From positions 103,735 through 167,734 of the forward strand of contig VXCM01000779.1 of NCBI GenBank assembly GCA_014773175.1: a DNA stretch of 64,000 nucleotides, read 5' to 3'. The DNA comes from Lucifuga dentata (lineage: Eukaryota > Chordata > Actinopteri > Ophidiiformes > Bythitidae). The notes under the pieces are model-generated. The model was not told the origin of the DNA and searched no databases. It was given only the letters and a program-made list of their open reading frames with translations. Of this stretch, positions 3-61,311 are shown in pieces. Positions within the stretch are counted from its first letter, which is position 1, and the number at the start of each line of letters is the position of its first letter. Made by a program: the position numbers and the translations under genes.

Positions 3-1408
3 TATTTGGGCCATGTGCTGCACATCGTCCGCATGGAGGAGAAGAGGAGGGAGAGGGAGGAGGAGCTCAGGAAGTCGGGGCGCCACCAGGAGGATCACGA
101 CCCGCTCTATCATAATGGAGTAGGTGATGGAGGAAGAGGAGGGAAGAGGGAGAAGCCGCCGATCCGGGATCAGCACGGGAAGATTCGAATACGTGGGGCT
201 TTGCTGAGGACCTACATCTTCAACATCATCTTCAAGACTCTGTTTGAGGTGGGCTTCATCCTGGGACAGTACATCCTGTATGGCTTCCACCTGAAGCCGC
301 TCTATAAATGTGGCCGCTGGCCCTGCCCCAATACTGTGGACTGCTTCATCNCCTGAAGCCGCTCTATAAATGTGGCCGCTGGCCCTGCCCCAATACTGTG
401 GACTGCTTCATCTCCAGGTTAGAGATCAGGATTTCATTTTAGGATCTTTTTCATGCCGATTATATGTAACAGAAAATTCACTGATATTTGTTAATGTCTT
501 TCCCCAGGCCCACAGAAAAGACCATCTTCATCATCTTCATGCTGGTGGGGGCGTGTGTCTCTCTCATCCTCAACCTGCTGGAGATCTACCACCTGGGCTG
601 GAAGAAGCTCAAGCAGGGGGTCGTCGACGGGTTTACGCCCGATAATGAGTCGCTGCTGCTGGGCGCCACCGAGCCCGGGGATTCAGAGATGATTCCCGAG
701 CAGAACTCTCCCCCAGCGCTCGACTCTTTGGCGGCCTACGCCAGCGTTAGCGTGGTGGAAGGAGGAGGAGGAGGAGGAGGAGGAGGAGGAGCAGGAGCAG
801 CTGAGGGAGGAGCTTACAGTCCCACTGAGGCCTCCTCCGCTGTGCTGTCCTTAAACTCTAATATGGCCGCCATCCCCACAGCTCTGCCTGCCAGACTTAA
901 GAGGGACGCCGCGGCGTTCCACCCAGATGACTTCCTGTCCATTTCCTTTTACGGCAGCGGTGAGGGAGCGAGCGCCGGGAGTCACAGGCAGCTCATGGCG
1001 GTGGAGCAAAACTGGAGCAACATGATGCTGGAGCTCCACACTCTGGATGGGAAAAACTCCTCCTCCTCCTGTCCTCTTCCTCTTTCTTCTCCCCCCTCCT
1101 CCCCCTCCTCTTCCTCCTCTCCTCACCAGGAGACAACCTCGCCACATCCACAAGAGGATCACCTCCCCACATCTCCTTCACCCTCTAGTCGTCCCCTTAT
1201 TCCCCCCGTAACCCCAGAAGAGGAGGCGGTGGATCAGGAAAACATTGTCACGGCGGTACCTTGCGTCGTCCCAGATGACAACTTCACCGTGGTTACCAGG
1301 GCAGAGATGCATAAGCCTCCCATCGCCATGGCAACAAACATCCGGAAGCTGAGTCGGGCCAGCAAGATCAACTGCGTCCGAGCTCGCCCCGATGACCTGT
1401 CTGTGTAG
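3..1408 (+). CDS. gja3: Alpha connexin, gja3-like (Cx46/Cx48.5), 5' partial
   Basis: Gap-junction channel subunit of the plasma membrane; gja3 orthologues act mainly in lens fibre cells. The window opens in the cytoplasmic loop after TM2 ([17 protein letters not shown]). TM3 follows ([17 protein letters not shown]), then extracellular loop 2 with the C-x4-C-x5-C pattern in [14 protein letters not shown], then TM4 ([20 protein letters not shown]). The [10 protein letters not shown] segment, an EQNW motif in the tail and the RARPDDLSV end favour gja3 over gja8. The tail has a run of ten Gly from (GGA)10 at 761-790 and a Ser-rich stretch around 1060-1125. Exons are 3-417 and 508-1408, with a GT-AG intron at 418-507. 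Bases 290-350 recur at 352-412 after an N at 351, an assembly artefact; with one copy removed the frame is continuous. The first half of the gene lies outside the window. Confidence 0.85.
290..412. other. False duplication around single-N gap (connexin exon)
   Basis: The 61 bases at 290-350 are repeated exactly at 352-412, either side of an N at 351. Together with the N this adds 62 bases and shifts the connexin frame. One copy is surely artificial, because removing it restores the conserved loop-2 sequence. Confidence 0.93.
418..507 (+). other. 90-bp intron inside the connexin coding region
   Basis: Donor AG|GTTAGAG and acceptor TTTCCCCAG|GC flank a 90-bp insertion exactly at the Arg codon of FIS-RPTEK. 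Reading through it would hit an in-frame TAG after eleven codons, so it must be removed to make the protein. Most vertebrate connexin coding regions are intronless, although exceptions such as gjd2 are known. Confidence 0.85.
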
Positions 1409-5561: not shown

Positions 5562-8500
5562 CTAATCCTGACACCCCATCATATTGGAGGTGATTTTATG
5601 AGGAACAGGGGCCATTCTGCTAGCATATAGTATCATAGGACTTTGATATTCATAAAACTCAGAGCCTTTGAACACTTTAATTCCGTCTGGACCACACAGA
5701 GCAGCATCACTGCTGGAGAAGGGCAGGGGGAGTTCTTGGCTCACAGTCCTGGGAGTTGTAGACAAGTCGATATTAATCATGTTCTTTCCTGTTGGGAGAA
5801 AATCAGTAAGCATGATTAAAGGACCATGCTACCCATTTTGCATGTTTGAGCCTAATACTGTGTATTTAATTTTCATACGTTACGTTACTGACAACCATTT
5901 CCCAAAGGATAAAACCGTATTTCAGCTTTCCTGATATTTTGCAAAATCTCTTAATTTTTCAAAATCAAATATTCAAGTGATACACCCACCTTAAAAATCC
6001 ATGTTTCTCCTGCTAATAGTTACACAGCCTTATGAAGTCACGGTCCTTTAAATTTTTCCATAAACGCAGGTCTTCTTTTGGGACTATATTCCCCGGTGGA
6101 GGCATACATTCACTCCACGCTTTTTATTGAGCTTAAACACTAAAATTACATAACTTCTAAAAAAAACCTGAATACACGTCTTGTTGGTGATGATGGATTA
6201 CCTATCCCAAGAACGTTTCAAGTATCAACAAGTTGATTTTAATAGCAGAATGAACTGAAACCAATGGCAGCCTGGAAGGTAGGAAGAACATTTTTAATTC
6301 TCTGTTCCAGTAGTATGCTTTGGAAAATGATTGTCAGTAATGTTATATGTATGAAAATTGAATATATAAGGCTCAAATATGCAAAATGGGTGGTATTTTC
6401 CTTTAAATTGGTCACAGCTCACCAATGCTACCTACGCTAAGTAAATCACAACTGAAAATACTAATTTCTATTATCAAAGCTAATCGTGATTGATATCCAT
6501 TGATAAGAAATTGTATGATAATGATAAATATCAGTCTAAATAGTTGATTGATTTTAGTTTTGAGAAATATCTCACTTTGCTGAGACCGCTGGATAGAATA
6601 TACTGTATATGTCTAAATGTAGATGTGGGAGCTATAATTGACCTGTTTTAGAGTGTAGATATGTACATGATAATATGTTCAAACCATGAACTTTTTGTTT
6701 GACTAAGCTGATGAGTTTTGCTTGTTTGCCCTGATTTCGTGGAGGACAGAAATAAGATTGTTAAAAGATATTATAGTTAATCCAAGTTTTGATAAATCAA
6801 AGTTCCTTGTACCGTCAAGAGGAGTAAAAAGGAAAATAAAATGAAATGAAATCATTGCTATTTTTGTCCCTGGGCTTTGGATCCTCTTCCTCTCTCTCTC
6901 TCTCTGGATCACAATCCTCAAAGTACAACTATCTGGGTAGATGTATTTACTGTAGTTCCAGATTCCCAGACCTGACACTTTAACCTCACCTTGGATGATA
7001 TGAATGGTGTTATTATCACTGTCATCACAGAAAAAAGCAGCATCCACGTGTCCTTCAATGCCCAGCTCTTCCTTCAGGCTTTTCGGGTAGCCTTCAATGA
7101 GGGTGTAGTGTGCCGCAGTTTTATAGATGTAAACCTGATCATCCTGCAGGAGAACTCTCAGTGTCAATTGCATGATGAAGAAAGAAAAAAAGAAAGGTGG
7201 CTGTCACTTCAAAAACTGTCGTACCTTTATCATGTACATTTTGTGATCGTAGGAAAAAGCGGCATCGAGGCCATGACCCATCTCCTTCCACTGTCTGGTA
7301 ATAGGGAAGGCATGTAGGCCATCACGAATTGTGTCCAGACGTAGGTAGACGGGACCTGAGCAGGTGGAATGATTTAATATTGATCTGCATAATCATAAAG
7401 GAATATCGTCTCTTGTCCGTGAATCTGGATTAATGATGTAATTATTACCAATGAAGGCGTAAACTTTGCCGACATCATCTGAGGTCATGGCATCCAGTTT
7501 GACGTCGCTGCATTTAGGGACTTTATAATCACCGCCATGACCTGTCATGTAAAATGCAAAAGATTACACATCTATTTCAGTGTAATAAAGGAGCATATCG
7601 GTGGTTTTACATGTTGAAGCCCAGTATATGGCCTGCATATATCTTACGTTACTGCCAGTTTTCAAAACATACTACTGGAGTGGTAGTTTATATTTTGAAA
7701 AATGGTGCCAGTAAAATCACCTGTATGCTCCTGTAACTATTTACCATCAAGAAGGAAGACAGAAAATAAAGATCTAAAAGAGGAAAAGAAGGAATCCTGT
7801 ATCTAGTCGACATACAAAGTCTACCAAAGCGAATTTGAGTAAATGACCTTTGAACTCACCAAAGCCGGGGCACTTCATGAAGTAATGTCTGCTATCTTTG
7901 GGGTAGTTGCCCGTCACCTCTCCCGTCTGTGGGTTGAACCTGGTGAAGTTGTATCCGTGGAAGCAGTAGTAGTGCTCGAGCCAGCGTAAAACTGAGGTGC
8001 AGGCCGGCAGGTGGGGCCACGACTTCACCTTCACCGCCTTTGTGGCGATGTCAAAACTGTGCACGTCGTGTCCTGTGGGGAGGAGTAGAAGAGATAGTTT
8101 GAGATGAAGGCTACCAAGCATCTCCCTCTCTCCTGGAACCCAGAATTTGTCTAGCTCATTCCAATTTGTGCAAACGTACCTTTAAAGAATAGAACGGAGT
8201 CTGTGATGCATTCTCCTTTGGGACACTCCACAGCAGCATCCAGGTGATCGGGGACCCCTGGGAAGTCCTCTGTGATACTTTTGGGATAACCTTCCTCCAG
8301 AGTATGGTTAAAGTAGCTGAAAACCTTGTCATCCTGGAGATTAGGTTAGAAAAAATAATTTATTGTCATCATCTGGAGCTACATGTGATACATATGTGCA
8401 TTTCCTGGCTTCACTGCTCCAACCTCGTCTCTCAAACTATCTGAGGAAGAAATATACCAGGAAGAAGTAAATGTGATCATGGTCGTCCGTGTTTTCTTCA

Positions 8501-11353: not shown

Positions 11354-13912
11354 TTATTTGTAGCGGTAGATCTTGATGCAGTGGTTCATGCTGTCTGACA
11401 CGACTATGTGGCCATCAGGGAGCAATGCTAGACCCCTGGGGCTGCTCAGGTTATCAATAACCAATGGCCAGCCGACCCCCTTGGCTGGGTAGAGCAGCAC
11501 GCGGTGGTGCTGCTTGCCCCAGTCTGCCACCACGATGTCCCCATCGCTGTCAATACAGAGGCCCCACGGGCAGGACAGAATGGGCCCTAAGCCTGAACAC
11601 ACACCCAAGATTCGGATAGTGTTCCATCCAGGCTCCAGGATTCTGATACATGGGACTCGTCCGGTCTCATTGCCTCGCTCTGATACGGCCATGAGCCCGG
11701 TAGTGAGACAGGCCGCCACCAGGTAGGGTCTGTGGTATCCGGTGACCACTGTACGCTCCAGCCTGGCTCCGGTCTTGGGATCCAGCTTGAAGGCAGTTAG
11801 GGTGCCACGCTTGATGTCAGCCACCAAGAACTCATCTAGTTGGGTAACAGTCACCCCTCTGGGAGCATCTAGCTCTTCATTGGTGGAGCCAATCATCGTG
11901 CCTCCAAAGGTTTGGAGGAGGCGTCCATGGCGGCTGAAGACTAACAGAGCGCGCTCAGCAGCGCAGGTCAAAGCAATGAGGCCCTTGGAGTTCACAGCCA
12001 CGTCAAAGTAGTTGCAGATTCGGGAAGACCTTTCTGATCCTGAGGGGGACACTTGCTGCACGACATTCTTCTGGAGGTCAGTCACTTGAATCCGGGCGTT
12101 TCCACAATCCACCACAAAAAGCTGCCCTTTGACAGTTGCATGAACCCCGCTAGGTAGGTTGAAGTCAGTGCGGCCTGACCCTTGTTTTCCAAACTGTTTG
12201 ACCAGATAAGCCGAGTCAAGCGCAGTTGAGCTACCCTCTTCATCCAGTTCCCTCAAAGACAACGCAGCTGTCTCTTTGCTGTACAGCTGCGATTCTTTTA
12301 CTTGGTGTAATTTGTCTCCTTCAATTGCAGACATGGACAGAGATCTGCTCACACGTTTTAAATCCAAACCCTTTGCACGATCCTGGGGTCTTGGTTCTTG
12401 TTCATCAGAGCTCATGGCACTTTTGTCTGATTCTGTGCATTTTCCTTGGTCTTGTTCAATCTTCAAAGGTTCCGAAGCAAGTCTCATTCGGTTGATCTTC
12501 CTTAGTCCTTTACGTTCACCCTTGTCACCATTAATCAAAGGACGTAGCTTGCCAGAGAGGTCAGCAGTGGACATTGAACGGCAGTGCTCCTCCTTACGTG
12601 GAGTATTCACATCAGCGTCGGTGTAACACAAATCCTCGCTGTCAGCTGGAGACGGAGGGCTACCACTGTCCACGGATGATTCATTTGAAGCCTTTTTCCT
12701 GGAAAATGCTTGTGCAGAAAGAAGATTTTGTTTGGAGACTGAACCATGCCCTGTAATTGTTGGAGACGCTGACACATCACAGCTTTGTTCGGTAATTTCT
12801 TCAGGTGGGCAAGATGGTTCTTCACACGAGACCAAGACAAGAGCCTTCTGCTTTCGCTTACTCTTGAGCGAGTAATGCCTCTTGGTTCCATTTTGTTTGT
12901 CATCAGATTCATCACCTTCAGACTCTCCGTGGCTGGAGACTGGTGGTATAGCCAGGAAAAGGTCTTGCCCTTGTATGTCTGAACACACGGACTCAAGTTC
13001 TTCATCTTGGGATGACTCAGACACACGATGTCGTCTTTGAACAGGAGACTTTAAGGTGGGGGATTTGATCTCGTCCTCATTATCTGTAGAGCTTGACAGG
13101 CGTAGTTTCCTGATGACACGCATGTTCCCACTGTTTGTCTTACTGGTCTCATCAGGACTTTGCCTTTGGGCTGCTCTACTGGGTGGTGGTTCCTTTCGAA
13201 TTTCAAGAGGGGCGGTGTTTGAAAATGCAATATCACCTGAATGCAAGGCACATTTCTGTCCTTGGATGCCACAGACACCAATAGGGTACGCCATGCCTTG
13301 CTCACGAACATCAACTTCCCCTAAGCTTAGGGTCTTAGACTCAGGGCTTGGCAAGAAACTGACTCTTTTCAGTGTCAAGGAGATTTCCCAAGGTTGGGTG
13401 ACCTCCGTCACCCCTCTTTGGAGCTGATTTTTGTTGGCTCCACCAGCAGTACTACCCCACCTTTGAATCTGCTCCTTCAGTTGGCCAATTTTCCGAATCT
13501 GATGGTCGACAAGTGACTGCACAACCCGCACCGCTGCCGCATTCTCCCTCTTCACCTGATCGAGGCGCCGCTGGGCCTCTCTGTGCTCTTGCTCCACCTT
13601 CTCAAGAAGGCGACGCTCTTCTCTTTGAGCTTGGATCACTGCGTTGTCCAGCTCACGGTTCACCTGCTCCACTTCAGCCTGCTGTCTTTCTCTGAGGGCC
13701 TGGAGTTCAAGCTCTCCTTGCTCCAGGTTGGAAAGGGCCTGGGTCACCCAGTGTGGCGGCGATGTAAGAGACACAGGTGTAAAGATGGAGTCTTGTGGGG
13801 AGAAGGCTCGGGGAGGTGGGGTAGTCGCATCCCTTTGTTTTGGAGTGCTGTGTGTCAAGAGGGCTGTGAACCCAGGCAGGGCTCTTCTTTCTGAATGAGA
13901 GCGCATTAACAT
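11354..13912 (-). CDS. TRIM32-like coiled-coil/NHL-repeat protein without RING
   Basis: A single 2,559-bp coding exon encoding 852 aa. Residues ~60-150 form a charged coiled coil rich in Glu/Gln/Arg (QALRERQQAEVEQVNREL). Residues ~160-570 are Ser/Glu/Lys-rich and probably disordered. Residues ~572-852 form an NHL beta-propeller, with FNLPSGVHATVKGQLFVVDC, DAPRGVTVTQLDEFLVADI, SCPWGLCIDSDGDIVVADWG and SSPRGLALLPDGHIVVSD. The final NHCIKIYRYK resembles the TRIM32 C-terminus. TRIM-NHL proteins are usually RING E3 ligases, but no RING or B-box Cys/His cluster is present. The frame stays open upstream only to an acceptor near 13938. A likely 5' UTR exon ending near 14061 has an in-frame TGA, supporting the chosen ATG. 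Family placement is secure, function unknown. Confidence 0.85.
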   Translation of the reverse strand: MLMRSHSERRALPGFTALLTHSTPKQRDATTPPPRAFSPQDSIFTPVSLTSPPHWVTQALSNLEQGELELQALRERQQAEVEQVNRELDNAVIQAQREERRLLEKVEQEHREAQRRLDQVKRENAAAVRVVQSLVDHQIRKIGQLKEQIQRWGSTAGGANKNQLQRGVTEVTQPWEISLTLKRVSFLPSPESKTLSLGEVDVREQGMAYPIGVCGIQGQKCALHSGDIAFSNTAPLEIRKEPPPSRAAQRQSPDETSKTNSGNMRVIRKLRLSSSTDNEDEIKSPTLKSPVQRRHRVSESSQDEELESVCSDIQGQDLFLAIPPVSSHGESEGDESDDKQNGTKRHYSLKSKRKQKALVLVSCEEPSCPPEEITEQSCDVSASPTITGHGSVSKQNLLSAQAFSRKKASNESSVDSGSPPSPADSEDLCYTDADVNTPRKEEHCRSMSTADLSGKLRPLINGDKGERKGLRKINRMRLASEPLKIEQDQGKCTESDKSAMSSDEQEPRPQDRAKGLDLKRVSRSLSMSAIEGDKLHQVKESQLYSKETAALSLRELDEEGSSTALDSAYLVKQFGKQGSGRTDFNLPSGVHATVKGQLFVVDCGNARIQVTDLQKNVVQQVSPSGSERSSRICNYFDVAVNSKGLIALTCAAERALLVFSRHGRLLQTFGGTMIGSTNEELDAPRGVTVTQLDEFLVADIKRGTLTAFKLDPKTGARLERTVVTGYHRPYLVAACLTTGLMAVSERGNETGRVPCIRILEPGWNTIRILGVCSGLGPILSCPWGLCIDSDGDIVVADWGKQHHRVLLYPAKGVGWPLVIDNLSSPRGLALLPDGHIVVSDSMNHCIKIYRYK

Positions 13913-14100
13913 TGTGATGAATATGAATAATCCTGTGCCTGTAAAGAGAAGAAGAAATTTGTTTGGCCATGGTTTAAAAACACCCCTCTGAAATTTTCAA
14001 ACTAGAAAAGAGAGATGGTTCAAATTTTTAATAACTCTACAAAAGCCAACAACATACAATACCTGCAGATGTAGCACTGTTCTCGGTTCAGATCTAAGTT
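13913..14100 (-). other. 5' UTR splice sites of the NHL gene
   Basis: On the minus strand an acceptor (TTCTCTTTACAG|GCACAGG) lies 26 bases before the ATG, and a donor (CTACATCTGCAG|GTATTG) lies near 14061. Joining them puts a TGA in frame upstream of the ATG. The extent of the upstream exon is uncertain. Confidence 0.5.
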
Positions 14101-53175: not shown

Positions 53176-56100
53176 TTATGCAGTCACAGGGTAAGAGCAG
53201 ATGGACGCCCTCTTCAGTTCACAGTCTGCAGCCGTCCACCAGCTCTCATCTGCACAAAACAAAGAGGTAGAGGCAGTTTGAAAAGTTGTTCTTAATGTCA
53301 GATCTCCATTTATAGGTTCTGGACCCCAAACTCACTGGCAGGTTTGAAAGGCATATTTGCTTTAAAACAAAATCACCCAAATTACACCATTTGTCATAGC
53401 CAGAAAAATGTAAAAATCAAAATTATCATCGGGTTTTCAAATTTCTGACGGTCCTTGAACTAATCATGTGCGCTGAACACTTCCATCAGGAAAAATAACC
53501 AAATCTAAGCTTAAAATAGTGATATTTCCTCAAAATCACTTTATTCTACGTCTCATTTAGAAATTCACCAAAAATAAACTGTTTGCACGATCCAGATTCT
53601 GTGAAAAATAAATTCTGTGTTCCTCAGCACAACTGGGAAGCCTTGAACGATTCGGCTGAGAACAGTCGTGACAAAAATTCAGCGAATCTTCGACTGAACT
53701 GCAGGCTGGAGCAGAGAGGAGAAGCAGTGTGCCTACCTAGTTATAGGTTGTAAAAATATAAATAGTTCAGTATGTATAGCATGTGGAGCTCCCCCTTTTT
53801 TTTTTTCCAATAGTGGTAACACTTGTAGGCTCTTGGAAAAATGTTGTATATATTNCCCCCTTTTTTTTTTTCCAATAGTGGTAACACTTGTAGGCTCTTG
53901 GAAAAATGTTGTATATATTGATTCCATCTTTTTTCAACTTTTTAAAATAAATTATCAAAGAGATTCAACTTACATTTTTTTCTTTTTTATGATTTATGCC
54001 ATTATAACTGTTAAACTACACGAAAGACGTTTTTGAGTTCTCCCTGCGTATAGCCATGATTGTGCTGTTTCCATAGAGGTGGCAGGACTTGCAGGTAAAG
54101 TGAAAAATGAGCCCACAGTGAGTAAAAATGTGACAGGAGCAAAAACTGCCCAGAAACTGCTTGAGGTCCAGTTATTAAAGCGAGTTCAAAGGTTGTTTAA
54201 TGCTACAGTGCAAAGCTCAACGCAATAAAGTCGTATTATCATCTAATCATTTCCCTTTGCCGTTTCCAGTGAAGTTAGGACATCTTATCTGAGCTTATTT
54301 GATCTGTAACCTTTATAATTATTAATGTAGCTAGAGATAAAGGTGTGGCTGTGCGGGTTTTACCTATCCTGAACATCTCCACACAGACAGGTTTGTCGGT
54401 GTGAATGTTAGGGTGGCCCGGCATCCAGTCGCTGTAACTCCCCTCTGACCCGTCTACCCATGATGCCTGCTGGTTCTGAAGGGTTCAAACAGAACACGTT
54501 GAAAACAAGCGTAGACAGGTAATTGATACAGAACCTTTTTTTGTTTACGTACTGATAATGTATCACGGTAAAAGTTCAATGGTCAATGTTCAACAAGGAA
54601 AGAATAGCACGTTTTGTCCTTGTGATATCGTATCTGATGACAGTCTCCTTGGCCTCTTTCCAGGGCTGCAGTCTGGAACCAAACTGCCAATGTACATTAC
54701 TGACAGCCAATTTCCAAAATGTCAAACTTCCTTTTTTAGTTTTCCTATTTTTTTTTTTTTCTTTCAAATCCCCTAATCTCTCAAAATCAAATATTCAGAT
54801 GAATAAAGTTGATTACTGGAATGAAGCCAATGGAAGTCTGGAAAATGTTAAAATTTACCGCTAAACTAGTATATTTTGGGAAATGGTTGTCAGTGATATA
54901 ATGTGTAAAACGTGCACTTTTTTTCCTCTTTTCTCAAAATCTACCTTGACTGTGGCTCCCAGCCAGGTCAGCACAGGGCTTCTCTCGCCTCCGTTGGTCA
55001 CCAAGGAAACCAGGCGGAAGTGTAGATCAATATTAGTTACCGATGCGAGCTCAGCGTTTGGGGCGAGAGCTCTGCAGGACGACTGGAGACGAGCACAGAA
55101 ACGTGAAGTTTAGTTTTTAGAACCACAGACGGTAATTACAAATTCAGCGGTCAGTACCTGTGCGTCTTTGAAGGCCATTGGAGTGCGGTTGAACTCGTAG
55201 CATTTTCCATTAATGCTCTCCCCCTTACATGCTACAGTTTCTGTTTGGAGGCTGGAGGTGGAGGGTTCAGTGCCCTGTCTAAAACCGTCTGGGAGGGAGA
55301 TTATTGGCTCGGTTCCCTGCCTGAAACCATGAGGGATATCAAAAGAAGGTTCAGTTCCCTGGCTGAAGCCCTGTGGGATTTTGTGAACAGGTTCGGTGCC
55401 TTGTCTGAAACCAGCTGGGATAGCCATCATAGGTTCAGTTCCCTGTTTAAAACCATCTGGGATTGTATACACAGGTTCGGTGCCCTGTTTGAAACCATTT
55501 GGGAGGGAGATTATAGGTTCGGTGCCCTGTCTGAAGCCCTGCGGGATTGTATGGACAGGTTCAGTGCCTTGTCTGAAACCAGCTGCGATAGCCATCATAG
55601 GTTCAGTTCCCTGTATAAAGCCGTCTGGGATTGTATGAATGGGTTCGGTGCCTTGTCTGAAATCAGCTAGGATAGGCATCATAGGTTCTGTCCCCTGTCT
55701 AAAACCTGATGGAATAGACATCTTTGGTTCTGTGCCCTGCCTAAAACCTGATGGAATAGTCATCTTTGGTTCCGTCCCCTGCCTAAAACCTGATGGAATA
55801 GTCATCTTTGGTTCCGTCCCCTGCCTAAAACCATCTGGGAGATGAGCAGAGGCCTCCTCCACTCTGACCCAACCACCGCCATTGCCTGAAAAACAGAAAG
55901 TCTCAAGGTTAGTTAGTAAACTCGTATTGGATTAATTAAAATACTGTATGTGCAGAATGTTGCTTCCTCACCCTCATCCCTCAACCCGTGTATTCTCTCC
56001 ATCTCTTCAAATCCTTTCCCCAGAGAAGGGCGGATGAAGGCTCTCCTGTCCATCTCACTGATGTGCTCCTCCACCAGACCAGTGTTGAGGTTGACAATGA

Positions 56101-57045
56101 ATCTCCTGGACGGCTCGGTACCTTGTCGGAACCCATCAGGGAGTTGGTAGGTGTTGTGTGCCTTGTGGAAACCTCTAGAGGGTCCGATGGGGACGGCTTG
56201 GATGCCTGTGGTGATACACAAATATCAACTTTGGATTAAACAATGCCCTTTGGCAGCCAATTGATAGACTAAGATAAACCTGGTCCTTTTTCTTCAATCA
56301 TTAACTCTTGTGTCACAATCAGCTGTCGTTTCTTCGACAGCACAATAAATCAACATGCAATGTAATTTGTTTTCTCACAATCATAAGATGCAAATATTTG
56401 AGCAATCACAAACTCTTTTTAGGACTGCTTTTATGTCAACTGCTGATTTTTAATGCTTTTAATAGTCATATTCTAGTTTAACTTTTATCTTTTTTTTAAA
56501 TCTTATTCTTATACGAAGCACTTGGAGTTGCACATTGTGTATGAACTGTGCTATAGAAATAAAGATTATTTTATTATTCTGAGATCACAAGGAAGCAGTT
56601 ATGTGACATTATTAGTCATATATCACCCAGTTCATTTTTTTTTTGTGATCGTAGAATATATAATAATCTTTATTTCTGTAGCACAGTTTGTACACAATGT
56701 TCAACTCAAAAAGTGCTTCACATAAGAATAAAAGAGATTTAAAAAAAAAATATATGACCAATAAAAGCATTAAACATCAGCATTTGTCATAAAAAGATAT
56801 GTTGTAAGATTCTTCTTAAAAAAACATCCATAGTCTTGGACCATAAAAACCAAAAGCTGCCACTCCAAACCTTTTAGTTTGGACCTGAGGAACATTTAAG
56901 GCTTAAGTTAGAAAATCTAAGGGACTTGCAGTGTAACCTAGTGTAACATATCAGATAAATAGAACATATAAATATATGAGTATGCATAATGAGAGAGTGA
57001 GATCTTACTTGACAGCACCAGGCATGGCAGCACAAACTTGAGCAT
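53176..57045 (-). CDS. Secreted protein with FRQGTEP repeats and a C-type lectin-like domain
   Basis: I do not recognise this gene. Six coding exons on the minus strand: 57009-57045, 55972-56205, 55158-55885, 54945-55082, 54364-54475, 53176-53249. All junctions are GT-AG and in phase, giving 440 aa. Residues 1-16 (MLKFVLPCLVLSSIQA) are a signal peptide. Residues ~17-90 contain one repeat, LPDGFRQGTEPSRR. Residues 106-301 are fourteen 14-residue repeats of the form [IL]PxGFRQGTEPxxx. Residues ~310-440 form a C-type lectin-like domain: GKCYEFNRTPMAFKDAQSSC, VLTWLGA, ASWVDGSEGSYSDWMPGHPN, PVCVEMF and WTADCELKRASICSY. The usual EPN/WND calcium-sugar residues are not conserved, so classical sugar binding is doubtful. 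The overall plan recalls proteoglycan/major-basic-protein-like lectins, but that assignment is weak. Confidence 0.85.
53791..53919. other. False duplication around single-N gap (lectin gene intron 5)
   Basis: 64 bases repeated about the N at 53855. Confidence 0.9.
54690..54905. mobile_element. Relic of the TTAA-type MITE family, copy D
   Basis: Shares TACATTACTGACAGCCAATT, CTCAAAATCAAATATTCA and TTTGGGAAATGGTTGTCAGT with copies A-C, but the outer termini are lost. It lies in intron 4 of the lectin gene. Confidence 0.6.
55258..55848 (-). repeat. 42-bp tandem repeat coding for 14 FRQGTEP units
   Basis: Fourteen in-frame 42-base units in exon 3 of the lectin gene. Units 2-4 (plus-strand ~55680-55806) are nearly identical at DNA level, suggesting recent expansion. 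Later units vary at the three or four residues after TEP and at the Asp/Ser/Ala/Gln before GF. Confidence 0.93.
56484..56745. repeat. Inverted pair of LINE-tail-like sequences
   Basis: The left arm (~56500-56575, ...CACATTGTGTATGAACTGTG...GAAATAAAGATTATT) and the right arm (~56660-56745) are imperfect inverted copies separated by ~80 bases. Each arm resembles the common 3' end of fish L2-type retroposons (GTGCTATA.AAATAAA). In intron 1 of the lectin gene. Confidence 0.6.
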
Positions 57046-60112: not shown

Positions 60113-61311
60113 GTTACTTTCTCATTTTAATTTTGAAAGCCCAAAATTGTCAAGCCTCTGGTTATAGTACAGGTCAGGTAAAGGTAAAGTTAAGGTCTTA
60201 ACTTTATTCCATTCAGTGATAAATGTTATGACTTGGCCAGGTGGGTAAGCAGATGAAAAATGTTTATTCACAGCTCTCATGACCTTGGACTAGAAAAAAA
60301 TCACTGAACAGACACAGCCTGGATTTGTCAACTCTTGCACGAAGGACAAACATTTGTCAGTGCCATCGCTGATAACACTTAAACTTTAAATATAATTTTG
60401 TTAACCCTATACAGTGACTGCATAACACAAATTAAATTGCCCATTAACATTATTTACCAGCTTGCCTCCCTTTAGTATTTTTTTAACTTAACTTTTAAAA
60501 CTTTTTTGTATGAACCCTTTGGTCTTGTAATTGCGTACATGAATTACTGTGGACTAACATAAAACTCTAATTTGTTCAACTAATTTCTTTTTATTTATTT
60601 GTTTTTTCTTTTTAATACCTGGTCAGGGACTACAGATGATAATTAGTCTTTGACTAACTTTGGTACCTTTACAGAAATGTGTATTAATGTAAGAAAGAAA
60701 GAAATTTCTGCTGAAGGATCACTGTGTAATGATCAACTATGACCACAAGAGGGCAGTAAAGTATGCTATAAAGATGCAAGATTTGAAAAAAAAAAAATCC
60801 CAATATTTTAGTCATGTTAAGCCTTAGCAATGGGACACTAAACTCTCCCTCCCCTTCCAGGTCAGACAATAAAGTGACAGTCCACTTCATCAACAGAGAT
60901 GGAGACAAAATCACAGTGAAGGGTTCGCCTGGAGACTCACTGCTAGACCTGGTCATTAATGAAGACCTTGACTTTGATGGATATGGTATGCACACAAACG
61001 CTTGTTTGGACCGTCTCGCTTGTTCCTTACCTCCTTTGTTCTCTTCATCTATCTTTATTCTTCAATTCAACATGTGCATAGGAGCGTGTGAGGGAACGCT
61101 GGCGTGCTCCACGTGCCATCTGATCTTTGAGGAGGACGTCTACAATAAGCTGGGGCCGATCACAGATGAGGAGATGGACATGTTGGACTTGGCCTATGGC
61201 TTGACTGACATGTGAGACACGCACGTACCCTTGATAAGAATGTGCTGCACAGATTAGTTTGATTTAATCAGGTGTTCACAAGACATCCTGCATTGTCATT
61301 TTCACGAAATG

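What the first reader, a model, noticed from the sequence alone, without database searches (positions are those of the whole stretch)
53176..57045. Unrecognised secreted protein joining FRQGTEP repeats to a C-type lectin-like domain
Six exons splice in phase into a 440-aa protein with signal peptide, fourteen perfectly phased 14-residue repeats and a lectin-like domain with six cysteines. I know no named family with a GFRQGTEP repeat. The regular array in an extracellular protein suggests a structural, matrix or multivalent-binding role, but that is inference.
Basis: partly seen in the sequence, partly recalled or inferred. Interest (0 to 1): 0.75.

Follow-up and report, generated by a model that had tools for sequence, protein, structure and literature searches.

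The report
Fish secreted repeat-plus-lectin protein
This is a real, apparently secreted fish protein that strings fourteen copies of a tightly conserved eight-letter motif in front of a lectin-type domain; relatives are found in fishes from gar to cod and perch, but what it does is unknown.

Summary
Confirmed. Six minus-strand exons, every intron GT..AG, encode 440 aa at exactly 53176-57045, identical to a deposited Lucifuga dentata protein, LDENG_00187170. A signal-peptide-like start is followed by one motif copy in exon 2, fourteen in-phase 14-residue units in exon 3, and a six-cysteine C-type lectin-like domain (CTLD). The array is not neutral: in the eight motif codons pN/pS is 0.054, against 0.77 in the six linker codons. 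The protein belongs to a family seen in gar, bowfin and teleosts, mostly 'uncharacterized' or labelled wu:fa56d06. Non-acanthomorph forms carry a longer RQGTEPSRRFLxDLNTGL module; the 14-mer array most likely arose once, at the base of acanthomorphs. The CTLD lacks canonical calcium/sugar residues; its introns match those published for soluble single-CTLD genes. No paper in the library holds the motif strings searched, apart from one unrelated QGTEP hit. Best explanation: a secreted multivalent scaffold of short peptide ligands with the CTLD as anchor; architecture shown, function inferred. An uncharacterised family, not a new kind of system.

The parts
57009..57045 (-). Exon 1: start codon and most of the signal-peptide-like stretch
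   Evidence: donor GTAAGA; intron phase 1
55972..56205 (-). Exon 2: end of the signal-peptide-like stretch, first motif copy and one retained ancestral module
   Evidence: (35 of 62 aligned residues identical to Salmo salar P0118, score 144 against a maximum of 52 in 100 shuffles)
56042..56131 (-). Retained ancestral module FRQGTEPSRRFIVNLNTGLVEEHISEMDRR (residues 38-67)
55158..55885 (-). Exon 3: short linker, 14-unit array and the first hairpin of the CTLD
55245..55832 (-). Array of fourteen 14-residue units, consensus GFRQGTEPxxxIPx (residues 109-304)
55158..55229 (-). CTLD part 1 (C310, C319; residues 310-333)
54945..55082 (-). Exon 4: CTLD part 2, C336 and the WLGA (WIGL-type) motif
54364..54475 (-). 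Exon 5: CTLD part 3, GHPN at the EPN position, C410
53176..53249 (-). Exon 6: CTLD part 4, WWTAADC at the WND position, C426, C434, stop codon
52820..52825 (-). Possible polyadenylation signal AATAAA about 350 bases beyond the stop codon (weak: the hexamer is common in this window)
   Evidence: 120 matches in the window against 61 expected

Best explanation
A secreted extracellular protein made of two working parts. (1) A flexible, probably disordered chain that presents many copies of one short peptide, F-x-Q-G-T-E-P, on a 14-residue pitch; each copy acts as one binding site for an extracellular partner, so copy number sets the valence. (2) A folded C-terminal C-type lectin-like domain that has lost the canonical calcium/sugar ligands and so probably binds protein or glycan without calcium, anchoring the chain. 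The whole works as a multivalent cross-linker or scaffold in matrix or mucus. Shown by tool or sequence: gene model, homologous family, constraint on the motif, clustering of the array in acanthomorphs, missing calcium-site residues. Predicted: signal peptide (by eye), disorder (low AlphaFold confidence in the gar orthologue). Inferred: a partner for the motif, anchoring by the CTLD, the scaffold role, the tissue.
For: Gene and architecture. Motif octapeptide pN/pS 0.054 at widely varied synonymous sites (pS 0.69) against 0.77 in the linkers, so the units are kept for the motif, in an old array. The QGT[EQ][PN] core persists in the gar, bowfin, eel, tarpon, herring, salmon and zebrafish sequences read although spacing and surroundings differ. 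Of 13 acanthomorph species with two or more entries, 9 have entries with identical first 40 and last 131 residues, and in 9 of these 9 the lengths differ by multiples of 14: valence varies, the ends do not. AlphaFold of gar P0188: CTLD blocks mostly 74-96 with a dip to 59-68, repeat region mostly 24-48. At the E of EPN the family has H in 123 and E in 1 of 149 CTLDs; the WND position reads mostly W-T-A. All 25 carp-like (cyprinoid) entries fetched lack a CTLD by a family profile but hold RQGT[EQ], so the repeats can be kept without it.
Against: No expression, localisation, partner or phenotype data were found. Purifying selection shows that the motif matters, not that it binds a partner. AlphaFold was obtained only for the gar orthologue, not for the window protein, and low confidence in a 23-sequence alignment is weak evidence of disorder. 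Absence of the CTLD in carp-like fishes argues against a strictly two-part mechanism. In 4 of the 13 species with several entries the ends differ, and in 3 of those 4 the lengths do not differ by multiples of 14.
Confidence: 0.4

Rival explanations
1. A soluble host-defence lectin of skin or gut mucus: the CTLD recognises microbes and the repeats are a stalk that spaces or multimerises it.
For: The CTLD's three introns match those published for the antifreeze-like CTLD genes and said there to be shared by groups VII and XII and, for the first two, by Salmo salar serum lectins (PMC514892); one relative is named ladderlectin (P0095).
Against: A mere stalk need not hold FxQGTEP at pN/pS 0.054; the canonical calcium/sugar residues are missing; all 25 carp-like entries fetched lack the CTLD.
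Confidence: 0.2
2. A matrix protein of a mineralised or fin-skeletal tissue, working like sea-urchin spicule matrix proteins: a CTLD joined to a disordered repeat domain that gels.
For: The same two-part architecture is described for SM50 and SM30B/C (PMC6771980, passages).
Against: Order of parts reversed (CTLD N-terminal there); repeat type described there is different (MAQPG); no tissue data; the region before the CTLD is not strongly acidic (pI 5.89 in Lucifuga, 9.49 to 9.69 in gar, bowfin and elephantfish).
Confidence: 0.15
3. A precursor of small secreted peptides: older forms have dibasic RR before and after QGTEPS in some units, so convertases could release QGTEPS and neighbouring peptides.
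For: Stretches of the type RRQGTEPSRRFxxDLxTGLxKxxxxEMxRR in salmonid, pike and herring sequences.
Against: Other units of the same proteins read FRQGT without the dibasic pair, and the 14-unit array of this protein holds no RR; the CTLD is kept in most groups seen.
Confidence: 0.1
4. A neutral coding minisatellite without function in the repeat units.
For: Copy number varies between species and entries.
Against: Motif pN/pS 0.054 against 0.77 in the linkers.
Confidence: 0.03

Closest known systems
Uncharacterized protein wu:fa56d06 / LOC795664 family of fishes (database label only)
   Same: Homologous: QGTEP modules and, in most groups seen, the same CTLD
   Different: The zebrafish and other carp-like entries fetched lack the CTLD and have longer modules, not the 14-mer array
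Soluble single-CTLD proteins: groups VII (Reg/lithostathine), XII (eosinophil major basic protein) and fish type II antifreeze-like (PMC514892)
   Same: Three introns: just upstream of C1, just downstream of WIGL, between C2 and C3; glycine in the fourth WIGL position in 115 of 149 family CTLDs (but alanine in Lucifuga)
   Different: No such repeat array is mentioned for them in the parts of PMC514892 that I read; the Lucifuga CTLD is not basic (pI 5.55)
Sea-urchin spicule matrix proteins SM50 and SM30 (PMC6771980, passages)
   Same: CTLD plus a disordered repetitive region in one secreted protein
   Different: CTLD at the N-terminus, MAQPG-type repeats, invertebrate; presumably convergent (inference)
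Macrophage mannose receptor and LY75 CTLDs
   Same: Best solved-structure sequence matches: mannose receptor E 1.2e-10 with the single protein, LY75 2e-16 with the A3 profile
   Different: Large multi-CTLD receptors; the similarity is that of the general domain family

Membership tests
C-type lectin-like domain (PF00059) | Profile match above the curated cut-off | tested here: met
   42.8 bits against 22.6
C-type lectin-like domain (PF00059) | Conserved disulfide cysteines (long form, six; pairing recalled) | tested here: met
   C310, C319, C336, C410, C426, C434; each present in 145 to 149 of 149 family CTLDs
Calcium-dependent sugar-binding C-type lectins | EPN or QPD plus WND at calcium site 2 (WND recalled; EPN and QPD also stated in an abstract in the listing) | tested here: not met
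   HPN and WTA in Lucifuga; E at the first position in 1 of 149
Soluble CTLD groups VII/XII/antifreeze-like | Introns upstream of C1, downstream of WIGL, between C2 and C3 | tested here: met
   Introns after Q333, after K379 and within codon 417 against PMC514892
Soluble CTLD groups XII/antifreeze-like | Glycine at the fourth position of WIGL | tested here: inconclusive
   G in 115, A in 33, gap in 1 of 149; Lucifuga has A
Group XII, eosinophil major basic protein | Acidic neck before the CTLD (and, recalled, a basic CTLD) | tested here: not met
   CTLD pI 5.55; the 30 residues before it have pI 4.05 in Lucifuga but 4.87 to 11.83 in the 8 other family members tried
Fugu EMBPL of PMC514892 | CTLD pI 7.1, 30-residue neck pI 3.62 | tested here: inconclusive
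   Takifugu flavidus relative P0053 gives 4.76 and 6.76, which does not fit; the T. rubripes sequence itself was not available
wu:fa56d06 family | Homology along the protein, QGTEP module included | tested here: met
   1e-82 to Salmo salar wu:fa56d06; 7e-12 to zebrafish LOC795664 in the repeat part
Extracellular matrix proteins (functional class) | Incorporation in matrix | not testable with these tools
   No localisation data

The most novel reading that the evidence does not exclude
QGT[EQ][PN] is an undescribed extracellular ligand motif of ray-finned fishes, kept since before the gar-teleost split and read by a dedicated, still unknown receptor or matrix partner; acanthomorphs turned it into a 14-residue-pitch multivalent array whose valence changes by whole units, while the attached CTLD is an optional anchor that carp-like fishes discarded.
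Probability: 0.35. Interest if true: 0.65.

Novelty: new variant of a known kind. Interest (0 to 1): 0.45.

Why it matters
A gene seen from gar and bowfin to percomorphs (some 300 million years, recalled), with a strictly conserved short motif and no described function in the literature searched, is a good target. The zebrafish form has only the repeat half, while stickleback and other percomorph forms have both, which makes a natural comparison of the two parts. It also adds a repeat-plus-CTLD architecture that I did not meet in the parts read of the one published survey of fish CTLD proteins consulted here (PMC514892).

Tried and rejected
Rejected: an antisense gene. Plus-strand ORFs lie over the array (187 aa at 55107-55670), but a 42-base unit keeps any frame in step. 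One antisense frame gives pN/pS 0.349, so codon statistics alone do not exclude it; the splice sites and the homologues do. Rejected: neutral minisatellite. Rejected: link to human REG3A. The only paper holding QGTEP is PMC4035769 (one passage seen), where QGTEPN lies in REG3A; a five-residue match taken as chance. Considered: actinodin, another fish secreted family; 40 papers hold the word, 30 were listed with abstracts, none opened, and I saw no such name in the homologue rows listed; not tested by sequence. Considered: Fugu EMBPL, the pI values of a sister species do not fit. Weak Pfam hits below cut-off (Chordopox_A33R, CotJA and others) taken as chance; two passed their cut-offs narrowly, RCC_reductase in salmon P0118 and MPAB_Lcp_cat in Prochilodus P0114, both over short module stretches, and I take them as spurious. 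Viral contigs and phage records: no relative. Rfam at 50-60 kb: none. A sigma-70 promoter scan says nothing for a fish gene.

Relatives outside gar, bowfin and teleosts were not seen, but the listings stop at 120 rows of 196 and of 198 and only the best-matching candidates were scored, so absence is not shown.

Full report
What is there. On the minus strand, six exons (57009-57045, 55972-56205, 55158-55885, 54945-55082, 54364-54475, 53176-53249) join into a 1323-nt reading frame of 440 residues; every donor is GT and every acceptor AG. The same 440 residues are deposited as hypothetical protein LDENG_00187170 of Lucifuga dentata (P0001, 100% over 100%), a Cuban cave brotula, which very probably is the source. 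Lucifuga is an ophidiiform percomorph. The protein begins with a signal-peptide-like stretch (judged by eye), carries one motif copy and one longer module in exon 2, fourteen consecutive 14-residue units in exon 3, and a C-type lectin-like domain over exons 3 to 6 (PF00059, E 9.5e-11).

The array is under selection as protein. Among the fourteen units, F, Q, G, T, E and P of the motif are identical in 14 of 14; the leading G is kept in 13 and R in 10. In the eight motif codons pS is 0.690 and pN 0.037 (ratio 0.054); in the six linker codons the ratio is 0.768. By codon position 0 of 8 first, 2 of 8 second and 8 of 8 third positions vary in the motif; in the linkers all 18 positions vary. So many silent differences say that the array is not freshly expanded and that the motif has been held copy by copy. 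Against a simple reading: one antisense frame gives a similar overall ratio (0.349 against 0.337 in the sense frame); this frame-level test therefore does not by itself choose the strand, which rests on splicing and homologues.

The family. Searches with the window protein (196 hits, 120 listed), with a profile of salmonid, pike, mudminnow, smelt, anchovy and characin forms (198 hits, 120 listed) and with residues 1-150 of the bowfin form (4 hits) gave 189 distinct proteins. Those with a readable organism name are ray-finned fishes; most are deposited as uncharacterized, hypothetical or unnamed, and many of the non-acanthomorph ones carry the label wu:fa56d06. Gar (P0188) and bowfin (P0158) are included, so the family predates teleosts. 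18 of the 120 rows also carry the Pfam accession PF27023, which the local Pfam copy did not report for the three such proteins I scanned; what it describes I do not know. Non-acanthomorph forms repeat modules of the type RRQGTEPSRRFLxDLNTGLxKEHxSEMxRR ... FRQGTENSxxTLVDxRTG. Exon 2 of Lucifuga keeps one such module: 35 of 62 aligned residues identical to Salmo salar, score 144 against a maximum of 52 in 100 shuffles. Strict GF[RKS]QGTEP units occur in 0 of 81 non-acanthomorph entries and at least twice in 103 of 108 acanthomorph entries; the five exceptions (P0077, P0078, P0089, P0108, P0115) have one. The grouping went by the names in the listings, and three entries without an organism name were put with the acanthomorphs. 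A 51-row CTLD tree (one row per genus, chosen by me; quick method; 24 of 48 inner branches weak) puts the acanthomorph rows in one group with SH-aLRT 100; two changes of label are needed, the second being Monopterus with one strict unit. The array therefore most likely arose once, at the base of acanthomorphs, hake and cod included. Because I chose one row per genus, this tree says nothing about gene duplicates.

Valence varies by whole units. Of 13 acanthomorph species with several entries, 9 have entries that share their first 40 and last 131 residues, and in 9 of those 9 (seven entries for Epinephelus moara) all lengths differ by multiples of 14. In the other 4 the ends differ; Gadus still differs by a multiple of 14, Pleuronectes, Pampus and Salarias do not. 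In zebrafish and pike, which lack the array, lengths do not differ by multiples of 14. These may be splice forms, alleles or effects of repeats on assembly and gene prediction; I could not tell.

The CTLD. A pattern search found it in 149 of 189 entries. A profile built from those finds strong pieces of it in 5 of the 40 misses (P0032, P0091, P0098, P0135, P0151) and remnants in 5 more (P0124, P0162, P0169, P0175, P0170: catfishes and a knifefish). In 25 of 25 carp-like (cyprinoid) entries nothing above 3 bits is found, while 25 of 25 hold RQGT[EQ]; a sucker (Myxocyprinus) and loaches (Misgurnus, Triplophysa) keep the CTLD. No DNA of these species was examined, so a missed exon is not ruled out. 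At the EPN position the family reads H in 123, Q in 19 and E in 1 of 149, and at the WND position W, then T in 131 or S in 13, then A in 108; canonical calcium-dependent sugar binding is therefore unlikely. Introns lie after Q333, after K379 and within codon 417, which is just upstream of C1 (C336), just downstream of WLGA (373-376) and between C2 (C410) and C3 (C426): the three positions published for antifreeze-like CTLD genes and said there to be the same in groups VII and XII (PMC514892; outline, sections 11 and 31 and passages seen). The change of WIGL to glycine in the fourth position noted there for EMBP and most antifreeze proteins is present in 115 of 149 family CTLDs but not in Lucifuga itself. 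Membership in group XII fails: the CTLD is not basic and there is no consistent acidic neck.

Structure. AlphaFold of the gar orthologue (23-sequence alignment, mean pLDDT 51.5, pTM 0.40) gives a mostly confident CTLD from about residue 230 and low confidence through the repeat region.

Transcript support. None was seen for this species; PMC7826195 (passages) states that a transcriptome exists. Indirect support: P0042, a 509-residue relative from signal-like start to the end of the CTLD, lies on a contig of only 2086 bases, which leaves little room for introns and suggests spliced cDNA (inference).

Literature. No paper in the library holds FRQGTEP, fa56d06, LOC795664, six other gene numbers or six motif strings; QGTEP occurs in one, within human REG3A. 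Supplementary files were not searched, and most subscription papers are not in the library.

How it probably works. A flexible chain of short conserved ligands plus a folded anchor is a multivalent scaffold. The strongest evidence is the contrast between motif and linker, and the persistence of QGT[EQ][PN] while its surroundings changed. The carp-like forms, which show no CTLD, suggest that the repeats carry a function of their own. Tissue, partner and phenotype are unknown; the nearest architectural analogue I found is the sea-urchin spicule matrix group (PMC6771980, passages), with the parts in the opposite order and a different repeat.

Verdict. Observation confirmed; interpretation partly supported; an uncharacterised fish family with a lineage-specific repeat innovation, a new variant of a known kind (soluble CTLD proteins).

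Noticed in passing
window, N at 351, 2574, 24603, 30747, 32237, 33394, 35700, 41165, 43535, 53855, 62251, 62543, 63111: 18 of 28 single N positions sit between two near-identical flanks, against 6 of 2000 random positions. In 13 the flanks are 61-68 bases long, which looks like gap-closing artefacts of the assembly; the other 5 are 16-19 bases, at least 4 of them inside T-runs. The one at 53855 lies in intron 5 of this gene.
   Followed up: yes
P0130, P0131, P0138, P0172 and 21 other carp-like entries: 25 of 25 carp-like entries fetched, zebrafish included, hold RQGT[EQ] but show no lectin domain, whereas a sucker and loaches keep it; four catfish entries and a knifefish show only remnants.
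   Followed up: partly
P0050, P0054, P0055, P0060, P0061, P0064, P0067 (Epinephelus moara) and 8 other species: Entries of one species with identical ends differ by whole 14-residue units (9 of 9 such species), hinting at splicing or allelic variation of repeat number.
   Followed up: partly
18 of the 120 proteins listed, e.g. P0003, P0004, P0005: Precomputed Pfam accession PF27023 on relatives of this protein; not reported by the local Pfam copy. It may be a recent model touching this family or a chance hit.
   Followed up: partly
window 56522-56574 and 56658-56710 (intron 1): Inverted repeat, 53-nt arms 89% complementary, with GTGCTATAGAAATAAA; looks like two inverted copies of a retroelement 3' end (recalled resemblance).
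   Followed up: no
window 485-1405, 7774-8181, 11354-13996, 60787-61212: Neighbouring coding pieces: connexin, weak hemopexin (below cut-off), NHL-repeat protein; the ferredoxin-like ORF at 60787 and neurobeachin-like pieces at 30-49 kb are named from recall only, without a Pfam match.
   Followed up: partly
human REG3A in PMC4035769: Human REG3A, itself a CTLD protein, contains QGTEPN; taken as a chance five-residue match.
   Followed up: partly
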